A DNA stretch of 33,422 nt from a virus: positions 1 to 33,422 of the IMG/VR virus record IMGVR_UViG_3300044766_000018, one strand, 5' to 3'. Both the position numbers and the translations under genes were made by a program. Under the pieces are notes generated by a model. The model saw only the letters and a list, made by a program, of their open reading frames with translations, had not been told where the DNA came from and did no database searches. The first letter of the stretch is position 1, and every line of letters begins with the position of its first letter. Shown in pieces: positions 1 through 6,433 of this stretch.

Positions 1-393
1 TTCATCGAAGTGGATCCGGATGAGGTTCCGAACAACCGAGAAGGCAGGCGTGGACGTGTAAGTTATCCTATCACTAAGACCTTCCTAGAGTCAGGTCTGT
101 ATGTGGCCATGATGGATAGAACAGGTATTCAGCAGTCGCTTCAGTCACTCCAGAGTTGCCTGTTTTCCTACATCAGGAATCACGAACTTCCCATCAAGAT
201 GTTTACGCGTGGAGGACAGATTTACTTCATGCGTCTAGATATCGACAAGAATGGTAACCCAATGGGTGATTGGAAGGAAGAGCACGCAACTGAAGGGCGT
301 GATGGGGCCGATAGGAATGTAATTGCTATTCCTATCGACGACGCAGAGGTGGCTACTCGATTCAAGGAAGAAGAGGGTCAGGTGACTAAGTGA
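1..393 (+). CDS. Hypothetical phage protein, 5' end probably off-window
   Basis: The reading frame is open to the first base of the window. A GTG at 10 could serve as a start, but with no visible ribosome-binding site the gene more likely begins upstream and is truncated here. From the GTG it encodes 127 residues, soluble and charged, with no membrane segment or motif I recognise. Its stop codon overlaps the GTG start of the next gene (GTGA), so it is translationally coupled to the deazaguanine genes and belongs to the same operon. Function unknown. Confidence 0.6.
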   Translation, partial: FIEVDPDEVPNNREGRRGRVSYPITKTFLESGLYVAMMDRTGIQQSLQSLQSCLFSYIRNHELPIKMFTRGGQIYFMRLDIDKNGNPMGDWKEEHATEGRDGADRNVIAIPIDDAEVATRFKEEEGQVTK

Positions 394-1043
394 GTCATGT
401 TCTAGTTATATGCGCTAAGCGTTATAACGGACATGAGCTCTGGGTGGCACTTGGTGTGATGCGTCAGCGTGGGCATACTTTCGAAGTTGTATCTCAAGAC
501 ACAACTATTCGAGACGAACTCACGCTACGCCCCAATACGATCAATCGCACTGTCTGGAAAGTCGATCCTAGTGAGATGACTAACTATGATGGAGTTATGA
601 TCGTATCGGGAAACATGGCCGATACAGAAGCTTACTGGGATGACAAACATGTTCTCAGGCTCATCGAAGCCTCCAACAACTTAAGCAAAGCCGTCGCAGC
701 TATCTGCTGTTCTGTTTCTACCATTAGAACAGTAGCTGAAGGAAAGAAGGTTTCGTTCTATCCTCTAGTTAGAGCGCGTCATCGCCTAGCTTCTGCAGGA
801 GCAATTCTTCAAACAGTTGCTCTAACACGTGATGGCAATTTAGTGACAGCTGAACACCAGATGGCCTCACAAGTATGGGCTGAAGAGTATTGTAACGTTC
901 TAGAAGGGAAACCTCAGGAACATTTCTTTACTGACTCTAAGTTTGTACCAAAAGGACGTGAGCGTAAGCCTATTCCTGAACTAGAAGAGCTGAAAGAGAA
1001 GCTACGGAGGAAAGATGAACACCGCAGTAACGAAGGAGATTGA
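390..1043 (+). CDS. DJ-1/PfpI-like (class I glutamine amidotransferase fold) protein
   Basis: 217 aa from a GTG start that overlaps the previous stop (GTGA). It begins with a hydrophobic strand (SHVLVICAKRYNG) and has a GVMIVSGNMAD strand-turn typical of the DJ-1/PfpI fold. A later AAICCSV segment sits where the nucleophile-elbow cysteine of that family lies; the usual following His-Gly is absent, so activity is uncertain. The C-terminus is charged and helical. It is directly upstream of queD, overlapping it by 29 nt, which suggests a part in making or finishing a modified base, for example handling an amide or aldehyde group. That role is inferred only from position. A non-enzymatic DJ-1-like protein is an alternative. 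Confidence 0.6.
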   Translation: MSHVLVICAKRYNGHELWVALGVMRQRGHTFEVVSQDTTIRDELTLRPNTINRTVWKVDPSEMTNYDGVMIVSGNMADTEAYWDDKHVLRLIEASNNLSKAVAAICCSVSTIRTVAEGKKVSFYPLVRARHRLASAGAILQTVALTRDGNLVTAEHQMASQVWAEEYCNVLEGKPQEHFFTDSKFVPKGRERKPIPELEELKEKLRRKDEHRSNEGD

Positions 1044-1491
1044 ATTCGATGCTGGTCATCGTGTGCCTAATCATAATAGTAAGTGCCGTAATCCTCATGG
1101 GCATCGCTATAAGGTACGTGCTACTGTTGTTGGAAGCGTTCTTCAAGTAGCAGGTGATTCTTCCGAAGGAATGGTTGTTGACTTCGGAGACCTCAAGTCA
1201 GTCATGATGACTAGGATTCATGACGTTCTAGACCATGGCTTTATCGTCTACGACCTAGATGAAGTTATGAAGCAGGCGCTTAACATCCCCTTCGAGTTCG
1301 GCTACGAGAGTGAGCAAACATGGAGGGTAATCCAGCTCCCGTACGTTCCTACAGCTGAGAACCTCGCCCTATGGTGCTTCACTCAGTTGAATGACGTTCT
1401 CGATCTCGACAGATTTCATCTAGATGAAGTTACCGTGTGGGAAACTCCTACTAGTTCTGCTACGTACAACCCTCACTGGGAGAATTTGTGA
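1015..1491 (+). CDS. queD: 6-carboxy-5,6,7,8-tetrahydropterin synthase (QueD)
   Basis: 158 aa, ATG start preceded by a strong GGAGG site inside the end of the previous gene. QueD converts 7,8-dihydroneopterin triphosphate to 6-carboxytetrahydropterin, step two of 7-deazaguanine synthesis. Visible hallmarks are FDAGHR near the N-terminus (first zinc His), CRNPHGHRYKV (catalytic Cys and the two other zinc His), DFGDLK, and a late VWETPTSSATY block holding the conserved Glu. At 158 aa it is longer than typical QueD (about 120); the extra residues lie mid-protein around positions 85-110. Its TGA overlaps the GTG of queE, so the two are coupled. The family call is firm. Confidence 0.93.
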   Translation: MNTAVTKEIEFDAGHRVPNHNSKCRNPHGHRYKVRATVVGSVLQVAGDSSEGMVVDFGDLKSVMMTRIHDVLDHGFIVYDLDEVMKQALNIPFEFGYESEQTWRVIQLPYVPTAENLALWCFTQLNDVLDLDRFHLDEVTVWETPTSSATYNPHWENL

Positions 1492-2195
1492 CTCTTCGCT
1501 TGAGCGAAATCTACAGGAGCGTACAGGGTGAAGGACCCCGAGTTGGAGAGGCTACGATATTCGTTAGGTTTGCCGGATGCAACCTTCGATGCCCTAGTTG
1601 GCCTTGCGACACGCAACATGCCATCGACCCAGCAAAGTACCGACACGAGTGGCTACATCTCAACCCTAGCGCAATTGCTGAACGCATATCGTCCGTCGGA
1701 CCAGCTACAGACAATATCTGCTTCACTGGTGGGGAACCCTTCCTTCAGAACAACAAGGATCTTTCCCTTCTTGTTGAAGAGCTTATTGACAGAGACTTTA
1801 GGATTCAAGAAGTCTTTACTAACGGAACACTTCTCTTCCCTGACTGGGTCAAAGAATATCTGTACGTGGTCATGGATTGGAAACTTCCAGGATCAGGAGA
1901 AAGTTACCAAGACGCCAATCGATTCGAGAACTTTAAACGCCTCGATGGTCAGGACGCTATCAAATTCACTATTGCAGATCGAAACGATTACGATCATGCG
2001 ATCTCCATTTGGGATGCGCTCCGAGCCAGTAATAGTCGTAGAATCGACGAGGTCCCAGAGATCTTTTATGGTCCTGTTTGGGGGAAGATAGAAGCTTCAG
2101 AACTAATCAAGTGGGCTCTGGAAGATAATCGTCAGTGGCGACTCAATCTCCAGACGCATAATCTTATCTGGGACCGTACGAAACGAGGTATCTAA
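1488..2195 (+). CDS. queE: 7-carboxy-7-deazaguanine synthase (QueE), radical SAM
   Basis: 235 aa, GTG start overlapping the queD stop. QueE is a radical-SAM enzyme that rearranges 6-carboxytetrahydropterin to 7-carboxy-7-deazaguanine. The N-terminal SEIYRSVQGEGPRVG block is diagnostic of QueE, and TGGEP (residues 80-84) is the SAM-binding motif. The 4Fe-4S cysteines read C31-x3-C35-x4-C40 rather than the standard C-x3-C-x2-C: two residues are added between the second and third cysteine. The stop TAA overlaps the folE ATG (TAATG). Function is confident; the altered cluster motif is noted separately. Confidence 0.93.
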   Translation: MTLRLSEIYRSVQGEGPRVGEATIFVRFAGCNLRCPSWPCDTQHAIDPAKYRHEWLHLNPSAIAERISSVGPATDNICFTGGEPFLQNNKDLSLLVEELIDRDFRIQEVFTNGTLLFPDWVKEYLYVVMDWKLPGSGESYQDANRFENFKRLDGQDAIKFTIADRNDYDHAISIWDALRASNSRRIDEVPEIFYGPVWGKIEASELIKWALEDNRQWRLNLQTHNLIWDRTKRGI

Positions 2196-2749
2196 TGGAA
2201 GAGATGGAGTTCTACGCAGGTAATCTACTGTGCAGGTTGCCGGGGTGGGACTCCGTTGAAGAAGACCACAGAGCCGAAACGCCCAAAAGGTTTGTTGCCA
2301 TGCTCACTGAGATGTGTACACAAACAGACTACGACAAGAAGTTCAAGACATTCCCCAATCATGGCGTGGATGAAATGATTACTCTCGGACCTATTCCATT
2401 CTATACCCTCTGCGCTCACCATGTTGTTCCGTTCTATGGCAACGCCTGGATTGGCTATGTGCCGCGTGATCTGATCGCTGGCCTTTCCAAGTTTGCCAGA
2501 GTAGTTAAAGGTATTGCCAAGGGACTTTGGGTACAGGAGGAACTTACCCAAAGCATTGCCAACTACCTTGATGACGCTCTCCAGCCTCGAGGTGTTGCAG
2601 TTGTTATGAAGGCAGAGCACCTGTGCATGGCAATGAGAGGAATCGCTCAGCCAGGAGTAATCACTACTACATCGAGTATGAAGGGTGTCTTTGGTGACCA
2701 CGACCGAACCGCAAAAGCCGAATTCCTCCAGTGGATCCAGAACTCCTGA
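2195..2749 (+). CDS. folE: GTP cyclohydrolase I (FolE)
   Basis: 184 aa. It converts GTP to 7,8-dihydroneopterin triphosphate, the first step of the deazaguanine (and folate) pathway. Motifs seen are LCAHHVVPFYG (zinc Cys and His) and EHLCMAMRGI (second zinc Cys, with the M-x-x-RG signature), plus GLSKFARVV. It is slightly shorter than bacterial FolE (about 190-220), with a short N-terminus. ATG start overlaps the queE stop (TAATG). Because queD and queE adjoin it, it most likely feeds phage base modification rather than folate synthesis. Confidence 0.95.
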   Translation: MEEMEFYAGNLLCRLPGWDSVEEDHRAETPKRFVAMLTEMCTQTDYDKKFKTFPNHGVDEMITLGPIPFYTLCAHHVVPFYGNAWIGYVPRDLIAGLSKFARVVKGIAKGLWVQEELTQSIANYLDDALQPRGVAVVMKAEHLCMAMRGIAQPGVITTTSSMKGVFGDHDRTAKAEFLQWIQNS

Positions 2750-3059
2750 ACTTTACCTACTAGGAAAGAAGGCTCTGGAGGATAGCCGTCGATGGTTTCC
2801 TCAGACAGCTGAAAGCGTTGCCTTCACTGTACTAGCTCTTGCTGGTGAGGTTGGCGAAGTAGCTAACATCGTCAAGAAGATCGAACGCGGCACCTTCAAG
2901 TGGGGAGATGCTAAGGTTCGATTCGACCTTGACATGGAGGTAGCTGACGTCTTCACCTATCTCGTTCTTCTGGCAGGCCAGTTGAATATCGATCTGCTCC
3001 GTATATACGATCTGAAGCGTACCGAGAACGAACGTAGATTCGGAGCCAAAGATGTCTGA
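2694..3059 (+). CDS. MazG-like nucleotide pyrophosphohydrolase
   Basis: About 121 aa, all-alpha. The domain begins near ELYLLGKKALEDSRRWFP and carries LAGEVGEVANIVKK (E-x2-E metal-binding helix) and DMEVADVFTYLVLLAGQLNIDLL (E-x3-D helix), the pattern of MazG/all-alpha NTP pyrophosphatases that hydrolyse (d)NTPs to monophosphates. I place the start at the GTG at 2694, eight bases after AAGGG; GTG 2685 is an in-frame alternative. It overlaps folE by about 56 nt. Its place in the modification operon suggests nucleotide-pool adjustment. Substrate cannot be read from sequence. Confidence 0.75.
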   Translation: MTTTEPQKPNSSSGSRTPELYLLGKKALEDSRRWFPQTAESVAFTVLALAGEVGEVANIVKKIERGTFKWGDAKVRFDLDMEVADVFTYLVLLAGQLNIDLLRIYDLKRTENERRFGAKDV

Positions 3060-3354
3060 AGTAGAAAAGGCTATTCTCGAAGCACTTCAGGAGTTTCAGG
3101 CACTTCGTATCGAGCGTCATGCCAAAGGTGAAGAGAAGTATGGACATCTTACCTATCTGGGTAACGATGTTATCCGTATGATGCTCGAAGAGCTTGCTGA
3201 CCTGGTGAACTATGCTGAGTACCAGGCAGCGAAAATCCTCATGCTCCAACGTCTACTAGAAGAGGATCCTAGACTCGAAGCTGCAACGAAAGACAACCAG
3301 ATCACAATAGGTGTCGAAGCATTCAAAGGTACAAAGGAAGGGTGGAAGCAATGA
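3052..3354 (+). CDS. Small all-alpha protein, possible second NTP-pyrophosphatase-like
   Basis: 100 aa, ATG overlapping the end of the MazG-like gene. It is entirely helical and acidic, with HAKGEEKYGHLTYLGNDV followed by MMLEELADLVNYAEYQ; the EE-x2-D-x2-NYA helix resembles the metal-binding helix of MazG/dUTPase-type all-alpha enzymes found in many phages. The first metal-binding helix is less clear than in its neighbour, so enzymatic activity is only a suggestion. Its TGA overlaps the ATG of dpdA (ATGA), placing it firmly in the modification operon. Confidence 0.55.
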   Translation: MSEVEKAILEALQEFQALRIERHAKGEEKYGHLTYLGNDVIRMMLEELADLVNYAEYQAAKILMLQRLLEEDPRLEAATKDNQITIGVEAFKGTKEGWKQ

Positions 3355-4103
3355 AGCTTGCTCTAATTCCTCCAATCGACATGCTGGATGATACATGTCT
3401 GACACATGTTCAGATGATGCTTCCACATCTCCTGAAGTTCCCTTTCTATGCGAACGCCTACAGGAGACTCGCACAGGATTCGACACAGTTCGTCATCATG
3501 GACAACGGTGCAGCAGAGTCTGAGACCTTCAACATGGAGGCTCTTCTCTTCAATGCAATGTCATTCAATGTCGATGAGATTGTATGTCCAGACGCATTAG
3601 GTAATGCCCTCAACACATTCGACTTGACAGGTAGGTTTATTGACCTTGCCATCAAGGAGAAGTGGACAAAAGGTCTTGGCGTCGTGGCTCAGGGTTCTAC
3701 AGTTCATGAGGCATACGATACAGCTGTCGAGATGATCGAAGCTTTCAAGGCTGTAGTGACAGCAGTTCATATCCCTCGACTACTAATCAAACCTGGTAGG
3801 TTGAGTGCGCGGCTATTTCTAGCCAAGAGGTTACACGACGAGTACCCAAATATATCCATCCATCTACTAGGCGCGTCACCCCTGTGGTGCAGTGAAATTA
3901 AAAGGGCCCCGGTCTACATCCGTAGCATGGATACCTCGATGCCCTACGTGTATGGGCGAGCGAGGTATTACGTCGATAGGCAATACGGAACTCCTCCTCC
4001 TACCCGCGGAAACGACGAAAGCTTCTTTACTAGTAAGTGGAATAGTCCTCAGTACTCTGCTTGCCAGTACAACGTGGAGACTATGCTGAAATGGTCGAAG
4101 TAA
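3351..4103 (+). CDS. dpdA: DpdA-like DNA guanine transglycosylase (inserts 7-deazaguanine into DNA)
   Basis: 250 aa from the ATG at 3351, which overlaps the preceding stop (ATGA) and follows GGAAGGGTGG. It resembles phage DpdA proteins, compact relatives of tRNA-guanine transglycosylase that exchange guanine in DNA for a 7-deazaguanine base. Landmarks are MDNGAAE (Asp51), the VCPDALGN segment (Asp81), GVVAQG (113-115 region), HLLGAS (171-176), and RSMDTSMPYVYGR, where Asp194 is the candidate covalent nucleophile matching the second TGT aspartate. I see no CxCxxC zinc site. It follows folE/queD/queE and overlaps the polymerase gene by 13 nt. Base product and target motif cannot be read here. 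Confidence 0.85.
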   Translation: MKLALIPPIDMLDDTCLTHVQMMLPHLLKFPFYANAYRRLAQDSTQFVIMDNGAAESETFNMEALLFNAMSFNVDEIVCPDALGNALNTFDLTGRFIDLAIKEKWTKGLGVVAQGSTVHEAYDTAVEMIEAFKAVVTAVHIPRLLIKPGRLSARLFLAKRLHDEYPNISIHLLGASPLWCSEIKRAPVYIRSMDTSMPYVYGRARYYVDRQYGTPPPTRGNDESFFTSKWNSPQYSACQYNVETMLKWSK

Positions 4104-6433
4104 GAAAGCACCCATACGCAGAGTGTGAAAACTGTCCGCTCAGCCGAGGAGGGGTATTCGTCCCTTCAGTTGGGAATCCCAGTGCCAAACTTGCCATCGT
4201 CGGGGAAGCCCCTGGCGTGCAGGAATCCAGAGTGGGAAGGCCGTTTGTTGGGCCATCTGGAAAACTTCTCAACATGGTACTCAAACATCACGGGATCAAG
4301 CGTTCGGAAACAATGCTCACGAATGCCTGTCTCTGTCGCCCAGCAGATGGTTCGACGCCTCCTAAAGCCGCGATTAATAGCTGTCGACCGCGACTGCTCG
4401 CCGAGCTTGATGGAATTGGGATCACAACAGCACTTGCACTCGGTAACAGTGCATCTGAAGCTCTTCTCGGGGTATCTGGTGTTACAAAACTCCGAGTTGG
4501 CCCAGGACGACCTTCAACGTATCTCCCTAACGTACATGTCATTTCCACAGTCCATCCTGCAGCGTGCCTTCGCCAAGGGGATATGTTTCCTCACCTCGTC
4601 GCTGATGTAGGAAAGATAGGAGCGTCACGTGTTCCTTGGATGCCGCCTAGTTACTTCGTCGCTGAAACTCCAGTGGAGGCACTCTACGCGATCCAGTTCC
4701 TATGGCAAAGAGAAGGACCACTTGTTGTCGACATTGAAGTCGATATTGAAAAGGACACCGCTTTCGACCACCCAAATCGGTATGGCATGCTCTGTATTGG
4801 AGTCGCATACGCCAGAAAAAGAGCATTTGTATTCGCTGACAGTTGTTTGGACGCCCAAGTTTACAGTGAACTTGGTAAGCTATTCCGACGCCGACGCATC
4901 GTCGCTCAGAATGGCAAGTTCGATCTTGCGGGCCTATTCCCAAAGCTTGGGCCTCTTGAACTCTGGTTCGACACTATGCTTGCCAGCTACGTCTTCGACG
5001 AACGGCCAGGCATCCACGGACTCAAACACCAAGCTGTCGAATATCTAGGAGCTCCACAGTATGACGACGAAATCAAGCAGTACGTTTCAGGAGGAAGGTC
5101 TTACGCCAATATTCCTCGTTCAATACTACACAGATACAACGCGTACGATGTTGTTTGCACGTATGATCTGTTCAAAATGTATGAGAGGAGATTCGCGGAA
5201 CCTGCCAATGAAGGACTTAGATCCGTCCACGATCATCTCGTTGCAGCATCCAATCAGCTCATGTTCGTCGAGCTTAACGGAATTGCAATTGATCGTGAAT
5301 ACCTCAATGTGCTTTCCAAGGATTACCTTCAAAGTATCGCAGGAATAAGAAAAGAAATTCAAACTCTAACAGATACGGAGATTAATCCAAACTCTCCTTT
5401 ACAGGTTAAGAAGCAACTACTGACCTACAGGTGTCGAGTCGAATCTACTAACGCAGATACACTTCAAGGAATTATCGAAAGGACAGCAGAACAACCTCAA
5501 TATCTGGCTCTCAATCAGTTCTGTCAACTCTTACTGAAACATCGAAGGGAGGCTAAACTGTATGGTACGTATCTCAAAGGGACAACAACCAGACTCTATC
5601 GAGGTAGAGTTTACCCCACATTCCTTCTCCACGGAACTACTACCGGACGGCTTGCATGTAGAAATCCTAATCTCCAAAACGTTCCTCGAGAATCTTCCAT
5701 TAGGAAGATTTATGTTCCTGCAAAAGATGGGAACATCTTCGTACAAGTTGACTACAGTCAGGCTGAACTTAGAGTTCTGTCCTACCTCGCCAGAGACAAA
5801 TACTTCCGAGACATTTTTAACGGAGGAGACAGAGACCTTTTCGACGAACTCACACTCGTACTCTACCCAACTGCCAACCGTAGAATTCTCTCTTCCGCGC
5901 AATGGAAAGAACTTCGAATCAGAGTCAAAGCGTACGTCTACGGACTCTCCTACGGTCGTACTGAATATAGCATCGCTGATGAATACAGTATCCCTGTCGC
6001 TGAGGCCAGAGCCGGAATGTCCGCCTTCTTCAAAGTTATTCCGGAGATTGTGGAATTTTCTAAAAAGACACGTCAATCTGTCCTAGATGGTAACTACCTA
6101 GAGACACCGTTCGGAAGACGACGTCGATTCGGTTTGATCACGGACGAGAACAAAAAAGACATCATGAACGAGGCTCTAGCATTCATGCCTCAATCAACAG
6201 CTAGTGATATGTGTCTTCAAGCGTTCACCTGGGCAAGGAAGGAGCTTCGTGGGAAGGCATTCATTCGAAACATCGTCCACGACTCTATTCTGGCCGAATG
6301 TTCACCCGATGACGCAGAAGAAGTTGCCTCCGTTATCGATGAGCTTATGGTTCGATCGGCCAAATCGATCGTGGGTGATTACGTTCTATTCGCTACGGAC
6401 TACAAGGTCGGTCACAACTGGGGAGAGGTCTAA
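4091..6433 (+). CDS. Fused family-4 uracil-DNA glycosylase / 3'-5' exonuclease / family A DNA polymerase
   Basis: 780 aa from ATG 4091. N-terminus (about 1-190) is a family-4 UDG-like domain: Cys12, Cys15, Cys82 and Cys98 fit the 4Fe-4S ligand spacing, with GEAPGVQESRVGRPFVG (38-54) and a later STVHPAAC. Next comes a DnaQ-like exonuclease: VVDIEVD (Exo I), AQNGKFDL (Exo II), YNAYDVVCTYDL (Exo III). The C-terminal half is Pol I-type: DYSQAELR (motif A), R-x3-K-x3-YG-x2-YG (motif B) and VHDSILAE (motif C). This architecture resembles SPO1-type polymerases. Tyr replaces the Phe of E. coli Pol I in the O-helix, as in T7. No 5' nuclease domain is visible. It is the replicative polymerase candidate, coupled to dpdA. 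Confidence 0.93.
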   Translation: MVEVRKHPYAECENCPLSRGGVFVPSVGNPSAKLAIVGEAPGVQESRVGRPFVGPSGKLLNMVLKHHGIKRSETMLTNACLCRPADGSTPPKAAINSCRPRLLAELDGIGITTALALGNSASEALLGVSGVTKLRVGPGRPSTYLPNVHVISTVHPAACLRQGDMFPHLVADVGKIGASRVPWMPPSYFVAETPVEALYAIQFLWQREGPLVVDIEVDIEKDTAFDHPNRYGMLCIGVAYARKRAFVFADSCLDAQVYSELGKLFRRRRIVAQNGKFDLAGLFPKLGPLELWFDTMLASYVFDERPGIHGLKHQAVEYLGAPQYDDEIKQYVSGGRSYANIPRSILHRYNAYDVVCTYDLFKMYERRFAEPANEGLRSVHDHLVAASNQLMFVELNGIAIDREYLNVLSKDYLQSIAGIRKEIQTLTDTEINPNSPLQVKKQLLTYRCRVESTNADTLQGIIERTAEQPQYLALNQFCQLLLKHRREAKLYGTYLKGTTTRLYRGRVYPTFLLHGTTTGRLACRNPNLQNVPRESSIRKIYVPAKDGNIFVQVDYSQAELRVLSYLARDKYFRDIFNGGDRDLFDELTLVLYPTANRRILSSAQWKELRIRVKAYVYGLSYGRTEYSIADEYSIPVAEARAGMSAFFKVIPEIVEFSKKTRQSVLDGNYLETPFGRRRRFGLITDENKKDIMNEALAFMPQSTASDMCLQAFTWARKELRGKAFIRNIVHDSILAECSPDDAEEVASVIDELMVRSAKSIVGDYVLFATDYKVGHNWGEV

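What the first reader, a model, noticed from the sequence alone, without database searches (positions are those of the whole stretch)
390..4103. 7-deazaguanine DNA-modification operon lacking queC
folE, queD, queE and a DpdA-like base-exchange enzyme are coupled in one operon, but no gene in the window shows a QueC pattern (ATP-binding SGGxDS and a C-terminal zinc Cys set). Known phage versions insert preQ0, preQ1, ADG, archaeosine, carboxy- or plain deazaguanine. Without QueC the product of QueE is 7-carboxy-7-deazaguanine; with QueC from off-window or the host it would be preQ0. The product here is open.
Basis: partly seen in the sequence, partly recalled or inferred. Interest (0 to 1): 0.72.

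Follow-up and report, generated by a model that had tools for sequence, protein, structure and literature searches.

The report
Phage DNA-base operon, cut at contig edge
This phage fragment carries an ordinary gene set for swapping guanine in its DNA for a 7-deazaguanine; the 'missing' queC gene most likely lies just beyond the cut end of the fragment, and the less familiar part is an unstudied two-gene pair sitting in the same operon.

Summary
The operon is real: queD, queE, folE, a MazG-like gene, a small gene and a DpdA-type base-exchange enzyme overlap or abut on the + strand, preceded by a DJ-1/PfpI gene and an orphan (orf127). The window has no queC (PF06508). But the window is a whole 33.4-kb fragment whose left end cuts orf127 about three codons after its start, where relatives carry queC. 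In all 11 viral contigs with the window's gene order and sequence to the left, queC ends -2 to 1253 nt before orf127. In the wider DpdA lineage 46 of 48 loci with at least 2.5 kb upstream have queC, against 4 of 32 with less. So 'lacking queC' is most likely truncation, and the likeliest product is preQ0 in DNA, a known phage type. The 253-aa protein has TGT/DpdA fold (Z 17.4 to solved DpdA 7ui4). Truly queC-less relatives exist (phages phiST and phi13:1; contigs L068 and G048), but not among the closest.

The parts
1..393 (+). orf127, orphan small protein, 5' end cut off by the contig edge (about three codons after the start seen in relatives)
   Evidence: bases 1-9 read F-I-E in frame before V-D-P-D-E; most relatives begin M-V-K-F-x-x-V-D-P; no Pfam or PHROG family
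390..1043 (+). DJ-1/PfpI-family protein next to orf127; C106 (nucleophile-elbow position), E16 and H156 invariant in 6 homologues
   Evidence: PF01965 3e-11, TIGR01382 PfpI 1e-17 but under its cut-off, alignment A2
1015..1491 (+). queD, 6-carboxytetrahydropterin synthase
   Evidence: PF01242 3.5e-36; TIGR03367 over its cut-off
1488..2195 (+). queE, 7-carboxy-7-deazaguanine synthase (radical SAM)
   Evidence: PHROG 2076 8e-33; TIGR04349 7e-42, under its cut-off
2195..2749 (+). folE, GTP cyclohydrolase I
   Evidence: PF01227 1e-49; TIGR00063 7e-48, under its cut-off
2685..3059 (+). MazG-like nucleotide pyrophosphohydrolase
   Evidence: PHROG 229 1e-6; PF03819 4e-4, just under the Pfam cut-off
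3052..3354 (+). small conserved operon protein, unknown
   Evidence: no family; conserved next to dpdA in most relatives
3342..4103 (+). DpdA-type DNA guanine transglycosylase; D54, D84, Q117-G118, H174, D197 invariant
   Evidence: AF2 pLDDT 86.8; VIA Z 17.6 TGT, Z 17.4 to 7ui4 DpdA; BFVD best named hit phiST M4SLA5, TM 0.81; alignment with CP220, immuto, phi13:1 and phiST proteins
4061..6433 (+). DNA polymerase A with N-terminal uracil-DNA-glycosylase-like and 3'-5' exonuclease domains, next gene of the operon
   Evidence: PF03167 3e-26, PF01612 1e-8, PF00476 6e-62

Best explanation
It is a phage operon that makes a 7-deazaguanine and swaps it for guanine in the phage's own DNA, seen on a contig that is broken at its left end inside the operon. 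FolE, QueD and QueE make 7-carboxy-7-deazaguanine from GTP (inferred from family membership); a QueC encoded just left of the cut converts it to preQ0 (inferred from relatives); the DpdA enzyme then exchanges guanine in DNA for preQ0 (fold and conserved aspartates shown, reaction inferred), presumably hiding the DNA from host restriction enzymes (inferred). The DJ-1/PfpI and orf127 genes are an accessory pair of unknown role.
For: No QueC in the 33,422-base record, whose left end truncates orf127. The 11 contigs with the order orf127-DJ1-queD-queE and some sequence to the left (L005, L006, L013, L017, L026, L032, L036, L037, L044, L045, L076) all have queC upstream, in six of them within 60 nt of orf127 and in all within 1253 nt (L017's is cut by its own contig edge). 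Their QueCs carry SGGxDS and the four-Cys motif (10 of 11; L017 shows only the Cys part); L013's, and L001's, pass the QueC equivalog cut-off. In the DpdA lineage 46 of 48 loci with at least 2.5 kb upstream have queC, against 4 of 32 with less; 30 of 31 larger contigs given to a whole-contig search have QueC, and two of them (L153, L156) have queC at one contig end and the rest of the operon at the other. The window has no match to the relatives' primase and relatives' contigs are often 50-54 kb, so it is a partial genome. Hutinet 2019 (PMC6884629, passages read): FolE+QueD+QueE+QueC+DpdA without an amidotransferase gives dPreQ0 (Rosebush, CAjan). No QueF over the cut-off in 39 relatives.
Against: No contig overlapping the window's left end was found, so its queC was not seen. 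Four of the 21 related contigs with the pair (or orf127 alone, L081) inside the operon lack queC (L067, L068, L069, L081); L068 has 3.5 kb upstream of orf127 and L081's 51.8-kb contig has none at all, although their gene order differs. Two DpdA loci with enough sequence (L157, L158) also lack it. The nearest named structural match of the DpdA is that of phiST, which has no QueC.
Confidence: 0.85

Rival explanations
1. The phage truly lacks queC and DpdA inserts 7-carboxy-7-deazaguanine, the product of QueE.
For: phi13:1 has the order queD-queE-folE-MazG-hypothetical-ATPase-DpdA-like gene and phiST a matching row of genes; neither has QueC in its whole record. More distant relatives L068 and G048 have a primase just before queD (directly, or with one HNH-like gene between) and no queC; G040 and G044 (79 and 87 kb) have QueE and DpdA but no QueC.
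Against: All 11 contigs with the window's own gene order and left-hand sequence have queC; absence of queC in the lineage tracks contig edges.
Confidence: 0.06
2. The phage lacks queC and takes preQ0 from the host's queuosine pathway.
For: DpdA of phage 9g expressed alone in E. coli inserts some preQ0 using the host pathway (PMC6884629 passages).
Against: Same as above; the host is unknown; keeping folE, queD and queE would be odd if the host supplied preQ0.
Confidence: 0.03
3. The operon makes preQ0, but the DJ-1/PfpI protein (with orf127) processes the base further, for example hydrating the nitrile or delivering ammonia, so that the final base is not preQ0. (It can hold together with the best explanation's queC part.)
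For: The pair sits between queC and queD in 11 contigs; 42 of 47 contigs with orf127 or DJ-1 hold QueC, DpdA or QueD; C106 and E16 are invariant; no QueF over the cut-off in 39 relatives. That some DJ-1-superfamily enzymes hydrate isocyanides is recalled, from no call.
Against: In many contigs the pair lies among replication genes, away from the operon; the lineage-matched excess is weak; only 5 of 80 DpdA loci have the pair in their flanks; closest solved relatives are PfpI proteases/deglycases and DJ-1 homologues.
Confidence: 0.1

Closest known systems
Phage preQ0-in-DNA pathway (FolE, QueD, QueE, QueC, DpdA; Mycobacterium phage Rosebush, Escherichia phage CAjan; Hutinet 2019)
   Same: Same enzyme set, with queC expected just off the contig.
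   Different: The DpdA is a short (253 aa) version without a significant sequence match in 50,697 phage records; extra orf127 and DJ-1/PfpI genes.
Cellulophaga phages phiST and phi13:1 deazaguanine operon
   Same: queD-queE-folE-MazG-small gene-DpdA order (phi13:1 annotation); DpdA fold TM 0.81 to phiST.
   Different: No QueC in their whole records; an ATPase gene before the DpdA-like gene and a PolIII-alpha polymerase after it in phi13:1.
DJ-1/PfpI family
   Same: Domain and nucleophile-elbow cysteine.
   Different: A phage clade with no close relative in 50,697 phage records (two hits, 20% identity); beside orf127.

Membership tests
DpdA / TGT-fold base-exchange enzymes | TGT-type TIM-barrel fold | tested here: met
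   AF2 pLDDT 86.8; Foldseek top hits TGT 2ash, 7b2i; VIA Z 17.4, rmsd 3.5, 228 aligned to 7ui4 DpdA
DpdA / TGT-fold base-exchange enzymes | conserved catalytic aspartates | tested here: met
   D54 and D197 invariant with CP220, immuto, phi13:1 and phiST proteins; their equation with TGT residues is recalled, not computed
DpdA / TGT-fold base-exchange enzymes | guanine exchange in DNA | not testable with these tools
   needs enzyme assay or nucleoside LC-MS
Phage preQ0 pathway (Hutinet 2019 group 2) | folE, queD, queE and dpdA present | tested here: met
Phage preQ0 pathway (Hutinet 2019 group 2) | queC present | tested here: inconclusive
   absent from the fragment, which is cut at that place; present in 11 of 11 same-order relatives
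Phage preQ0 pathway (Hutinet 2019 group 2) | no amidotransferase (Gat-QueC, ArcS, QueF-L) | tested here: inconclusive
   QueF over cut-off in 0 of 39 relatives; ArcS not searched; full-length QueC ORFs of the same-order relatives are 223-297 aa, or 599 with an intein-like insert
DJ-1/PfpI family | domain match over the curated cut-off | tested here: met
   PF01965 43.7 bits against 26.6; NCBIfam PfpI subfamily cut-off not reached

The most novel reading that the evidence does not exclude
The orf127-DJ-1/PfpI pair is a previously undescribed accessory of phage deazaguanine modification: a cysteine enzyme plus a small partner that acts on preQ0 or on the modified DNA and yields a base not yet catalogued, or protects the modified DNA.
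Probability: 0.1. Interest if true: 0.6.

Novelty: new member of a known kind. Interest (0 to 1): 0.25.

Why it matters
It removes a false lead (a queC-less operon inferred from a truncated contig) and shows how to tell: absence of queC in this lineage tracks contig ends. It also points to relatives that probably do lack queC (G048, L068, G040, G044), better candidates for carboxy-deazaguanine DNA, and to an unstudied gene pair that travels with deazaguanine phages.

Tried and rejected
A close overlap to the left: the viral-contig scans with DJ-1 and orf127 gave nothing above 65% identity, so no contig of the same phage; megablast of window 1-25000 against 50,697 phage records gave nothing. 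The start and end of the window do not recur (test printed nothing), so there is no sign of a circular genome.

DJ-1 as queC's replacement: rejected, since the 11 contigs with DJ-1 in this order also have queC. DJ-1 as a defence protein: no PADLOC match. Host by DJ-1: a scan of bacterial genomes gave 26 stretches, none a relative. orf127 in phage records (L009's homologue as query): no match. tblastn of the window DpdA against phage records: no match; the link was made through a relative (L009) and by fold.

orf127: AF2 pLDDT 81.3, pTM 0.62; Foldseek best E 0.14, VIA best Z 5.4, i.e. no reliable fold; a winged-helix-like arrangement is only suggested. PHROG: nothing; Pfam: only weak matches, each in one of 30 members.

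Association of the pair with deazaguanine genes: raw 42 of 47 contigs (QueC in 35, DpdA in 5 more, QueD in 2 more; the other 5 are 7.5-25.4 kb). Lineage-matched control, loci of at least 10 kb found by a replication AAA gene: pathway genes in the fetched stretch in 5 of 6 with DJ-1 against 25 of 44 without (the other 30 of the 80 loci are under 10 kb); the sixth DJ-1 locus (L217) lies on a contig with QueD. Counting it, my own arithmetic C(31,6)/C(50,6) gives 0.046; not counting it the excess is not significant. So most of the association may be lineage.

Selections to know: searches were given 31 of the 80 DpdA loci, larger contigs without DJ-1 in the flank; the 0 of 31 for DJ-1 is therefore not a free sample. 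One search used all 80. One search kept 80 of 171 confirmed loci, one search kept 80 of 388. The QueF search was given 39 of the contigs then known. The 11 same-order contigs were picked by reading the maps; the script used coordinates copied from there.

Literature: 'PfpI' with 'deazaguanine' and 'phage' gave one paper, seen in the listing only, with a single mention of PfpI. Cui 2023 (10.1093/nar/gkad657), which reports further deazaguanine bases, is not held; what it says, including the base of phiST, is recalled and not used as evidence.

Full report
What is in the window. The record is the whole of a 33,422-base virus contig. Bases 1-6433 hold, on the + strand and with overlapping or touching ends, orf127 (cut), a DJ-1/PfpI gene, queD, queE, folE, a MazG-like gene, a small gene, a DpdA-like gene and a UDG-exonuclease-DNA polymerase A fusion. 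The rest, mostly on the - strand, is a structural module: endolysin, tail genes, tape measure, major head protein, protease, portal, terminase. No tRNA. A six-frame search with the QueC family finds nothing; the same search finds QueC in 12 of 14 control genomes.

The contig edge. Bases 1-9 read F-I-E in frame with orf127, continuing as V-D-P-D-E-V-P; many homologues start M-V-K-F-I-x-V-D-P or the like. The contig thus begins about three codons inside orf127. There is no primase match in the window and its first and last bases do not recur, while relatives' contigs are often 50-54 kb. The fragment is missing its left, early region.

Where relatives keep queC. Scans of viral contigs with the DpdA protein gave 4 relatives, with DJ-1 5, with the DJ-1 alignment 35, with the orf127 alignment 41; together give 47 distinct contigs with orf127 or DJ-1. 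In 21 of them, by my reading of the maps, the pair (or, in L081, orf127 alone) is in the deazaguanine operon; 17 of 21 have queC. The 11 with the window's order all have it, ending -2, 10, 17, 30, 45, 59, 367, 659, 943, 962 and 1253 nt before orf127. The four without (L067, L068, L069, L081) have a different order (queD before orf127, or none in the stretch); in L068 a primase runs straight into queD, and the contig of L081 (G048, 51.8 kb) has no QueC anywhere. The QueCs of the 11 carry the SGGxDS and Cys motifs given for canonical QueC in PMC13329287 (passages), with seven instead of eight residues in the first Cys spacing; L017 shows only its Cys end.

The wider DpdA lineage. An alignment-based scan gave 171 loci, 80 kept. 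Of 48 with at least 2.5 kb before the first pathway gene 46 have queC; of 32 with less, 4. The two exceptions (L157, L158) have no QueC in their whole contigs either (9.2 and 7.7 kb). Of 31 larger contigs searched whole, 30 have QueC; the exception, L141's contig, ends about 320 nt before queD. In L153 and L156 queC stands at the right contig end and the rest of the operon at the left, a break like the one in the window.

The base-exchange enzyme. The 253-aa protein has no significant family match by sequence and none in phage records. Its model (pLDDT 86.8) matches TGTs (Foldseek E 9e-6; VIA Z 17.6) and the solved DNA preQ0 insertase DpdA 7ui4 (Z 17.4, rmsd 3.5, 228 aligned), and among viral models a phiST protein (TM 0.81). 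A relative, L009's, matches Campylobacter phage, Cellulophaga phage and Flavobacterium phage proteins, the last annotated DpdA. D54, D84, Q117-G118, H174 and D197 are invariant among nine such proteins. It is DpdA-like by fold and residues; activity is not shown.

How it most likely works. FolE, QueD and QueE make 7-carboxy-7-deazaguanine, QueC (off the contig) turns it into preQ0, DpdA puts it into DNA. Hutinet 2019 (PMC6884629; passages) found preQ0 in the DNA of phages with this set and no amidotransferase; the same paper lists one phage (Bipper) missing only queC and one clone whose missing queC may be due to an incomplete genome, the situation here. QueF was over its cut-off in 0 of 39 relatives; 11 gave weak hits under it, which I take for the related FolE since several lie at folE. 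My estimates: queC just off the edge about 0.9; base preQ0 about 0.7.

True queC-less cases. phiST and phi13:1 have no QueC in their whole records; CP220 and immuto do. phi13:1 has nearly the window's operon order. Contigs G048, L068, G040 and G044 are further candidates.

The pair orf127-DJ-1. The two genes are adjacent in nearly all loci and 42 of 47 contigs with either carry QueC, DpdA or QueD. Outside the operon they lie near genes resembling helicase, ligase, nuclease and AAA proteins (names by my reading of the sequences). A lineage-matched control weakens the link. DJ-1's closest solved relatives are DJ-1 homologues and PfpI proteases/deglycases; orf127 has no clear fold. Their role is open.

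Noticed in passing
window 1-1043; 47 contigs: orf127 and a DJ-1/PfpI gene form a conserved pair, found almost only in deazaguanine phages, sometimes inside the operon and sometimes among replication genes; function unknown.
   Followed up: partly
L026 3907-5706: queC is interrupted by an intein-like insert (starts with Cys, ends His-Asn before Ser, with a LAGLIDADG-like stretch), read from the sequence.
   Followed up: no
L004 11141-14509: The UDG-polymerase A gene is interrupted by an intein-like insert: the polymerase match splits in two within one open frame.
   Followed up: no
window 1488-2195: QueE has C-x3-C-x4-C where L007-L009 relatives have C-x3-C-x2-C (the usual radical SAM spacing, recalled); shared by L001, L002, L004, L005 and L006.
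   Followed up: no
window 4061-6433: DNA polymerase A fused to an N-terminal uracil-DNA-glycosylase-like domain, in the same operon and conserved in the lineage.
   Followed up: no
G048 (L088, L089), L068, G040 (L086), G044 (L087): Relatives with deazaguanine genes but no QueC in the whole contig: better candidates for carboxy-deazaguanine DNA.
   Followed up: partly
L153, L156 (contigs G070, G072): Contigs of 51-52 kb broken between queC and the rest of the operon, so the two parts lie at opposite ends, as in a circularly permuted genome.
   Followed up: no
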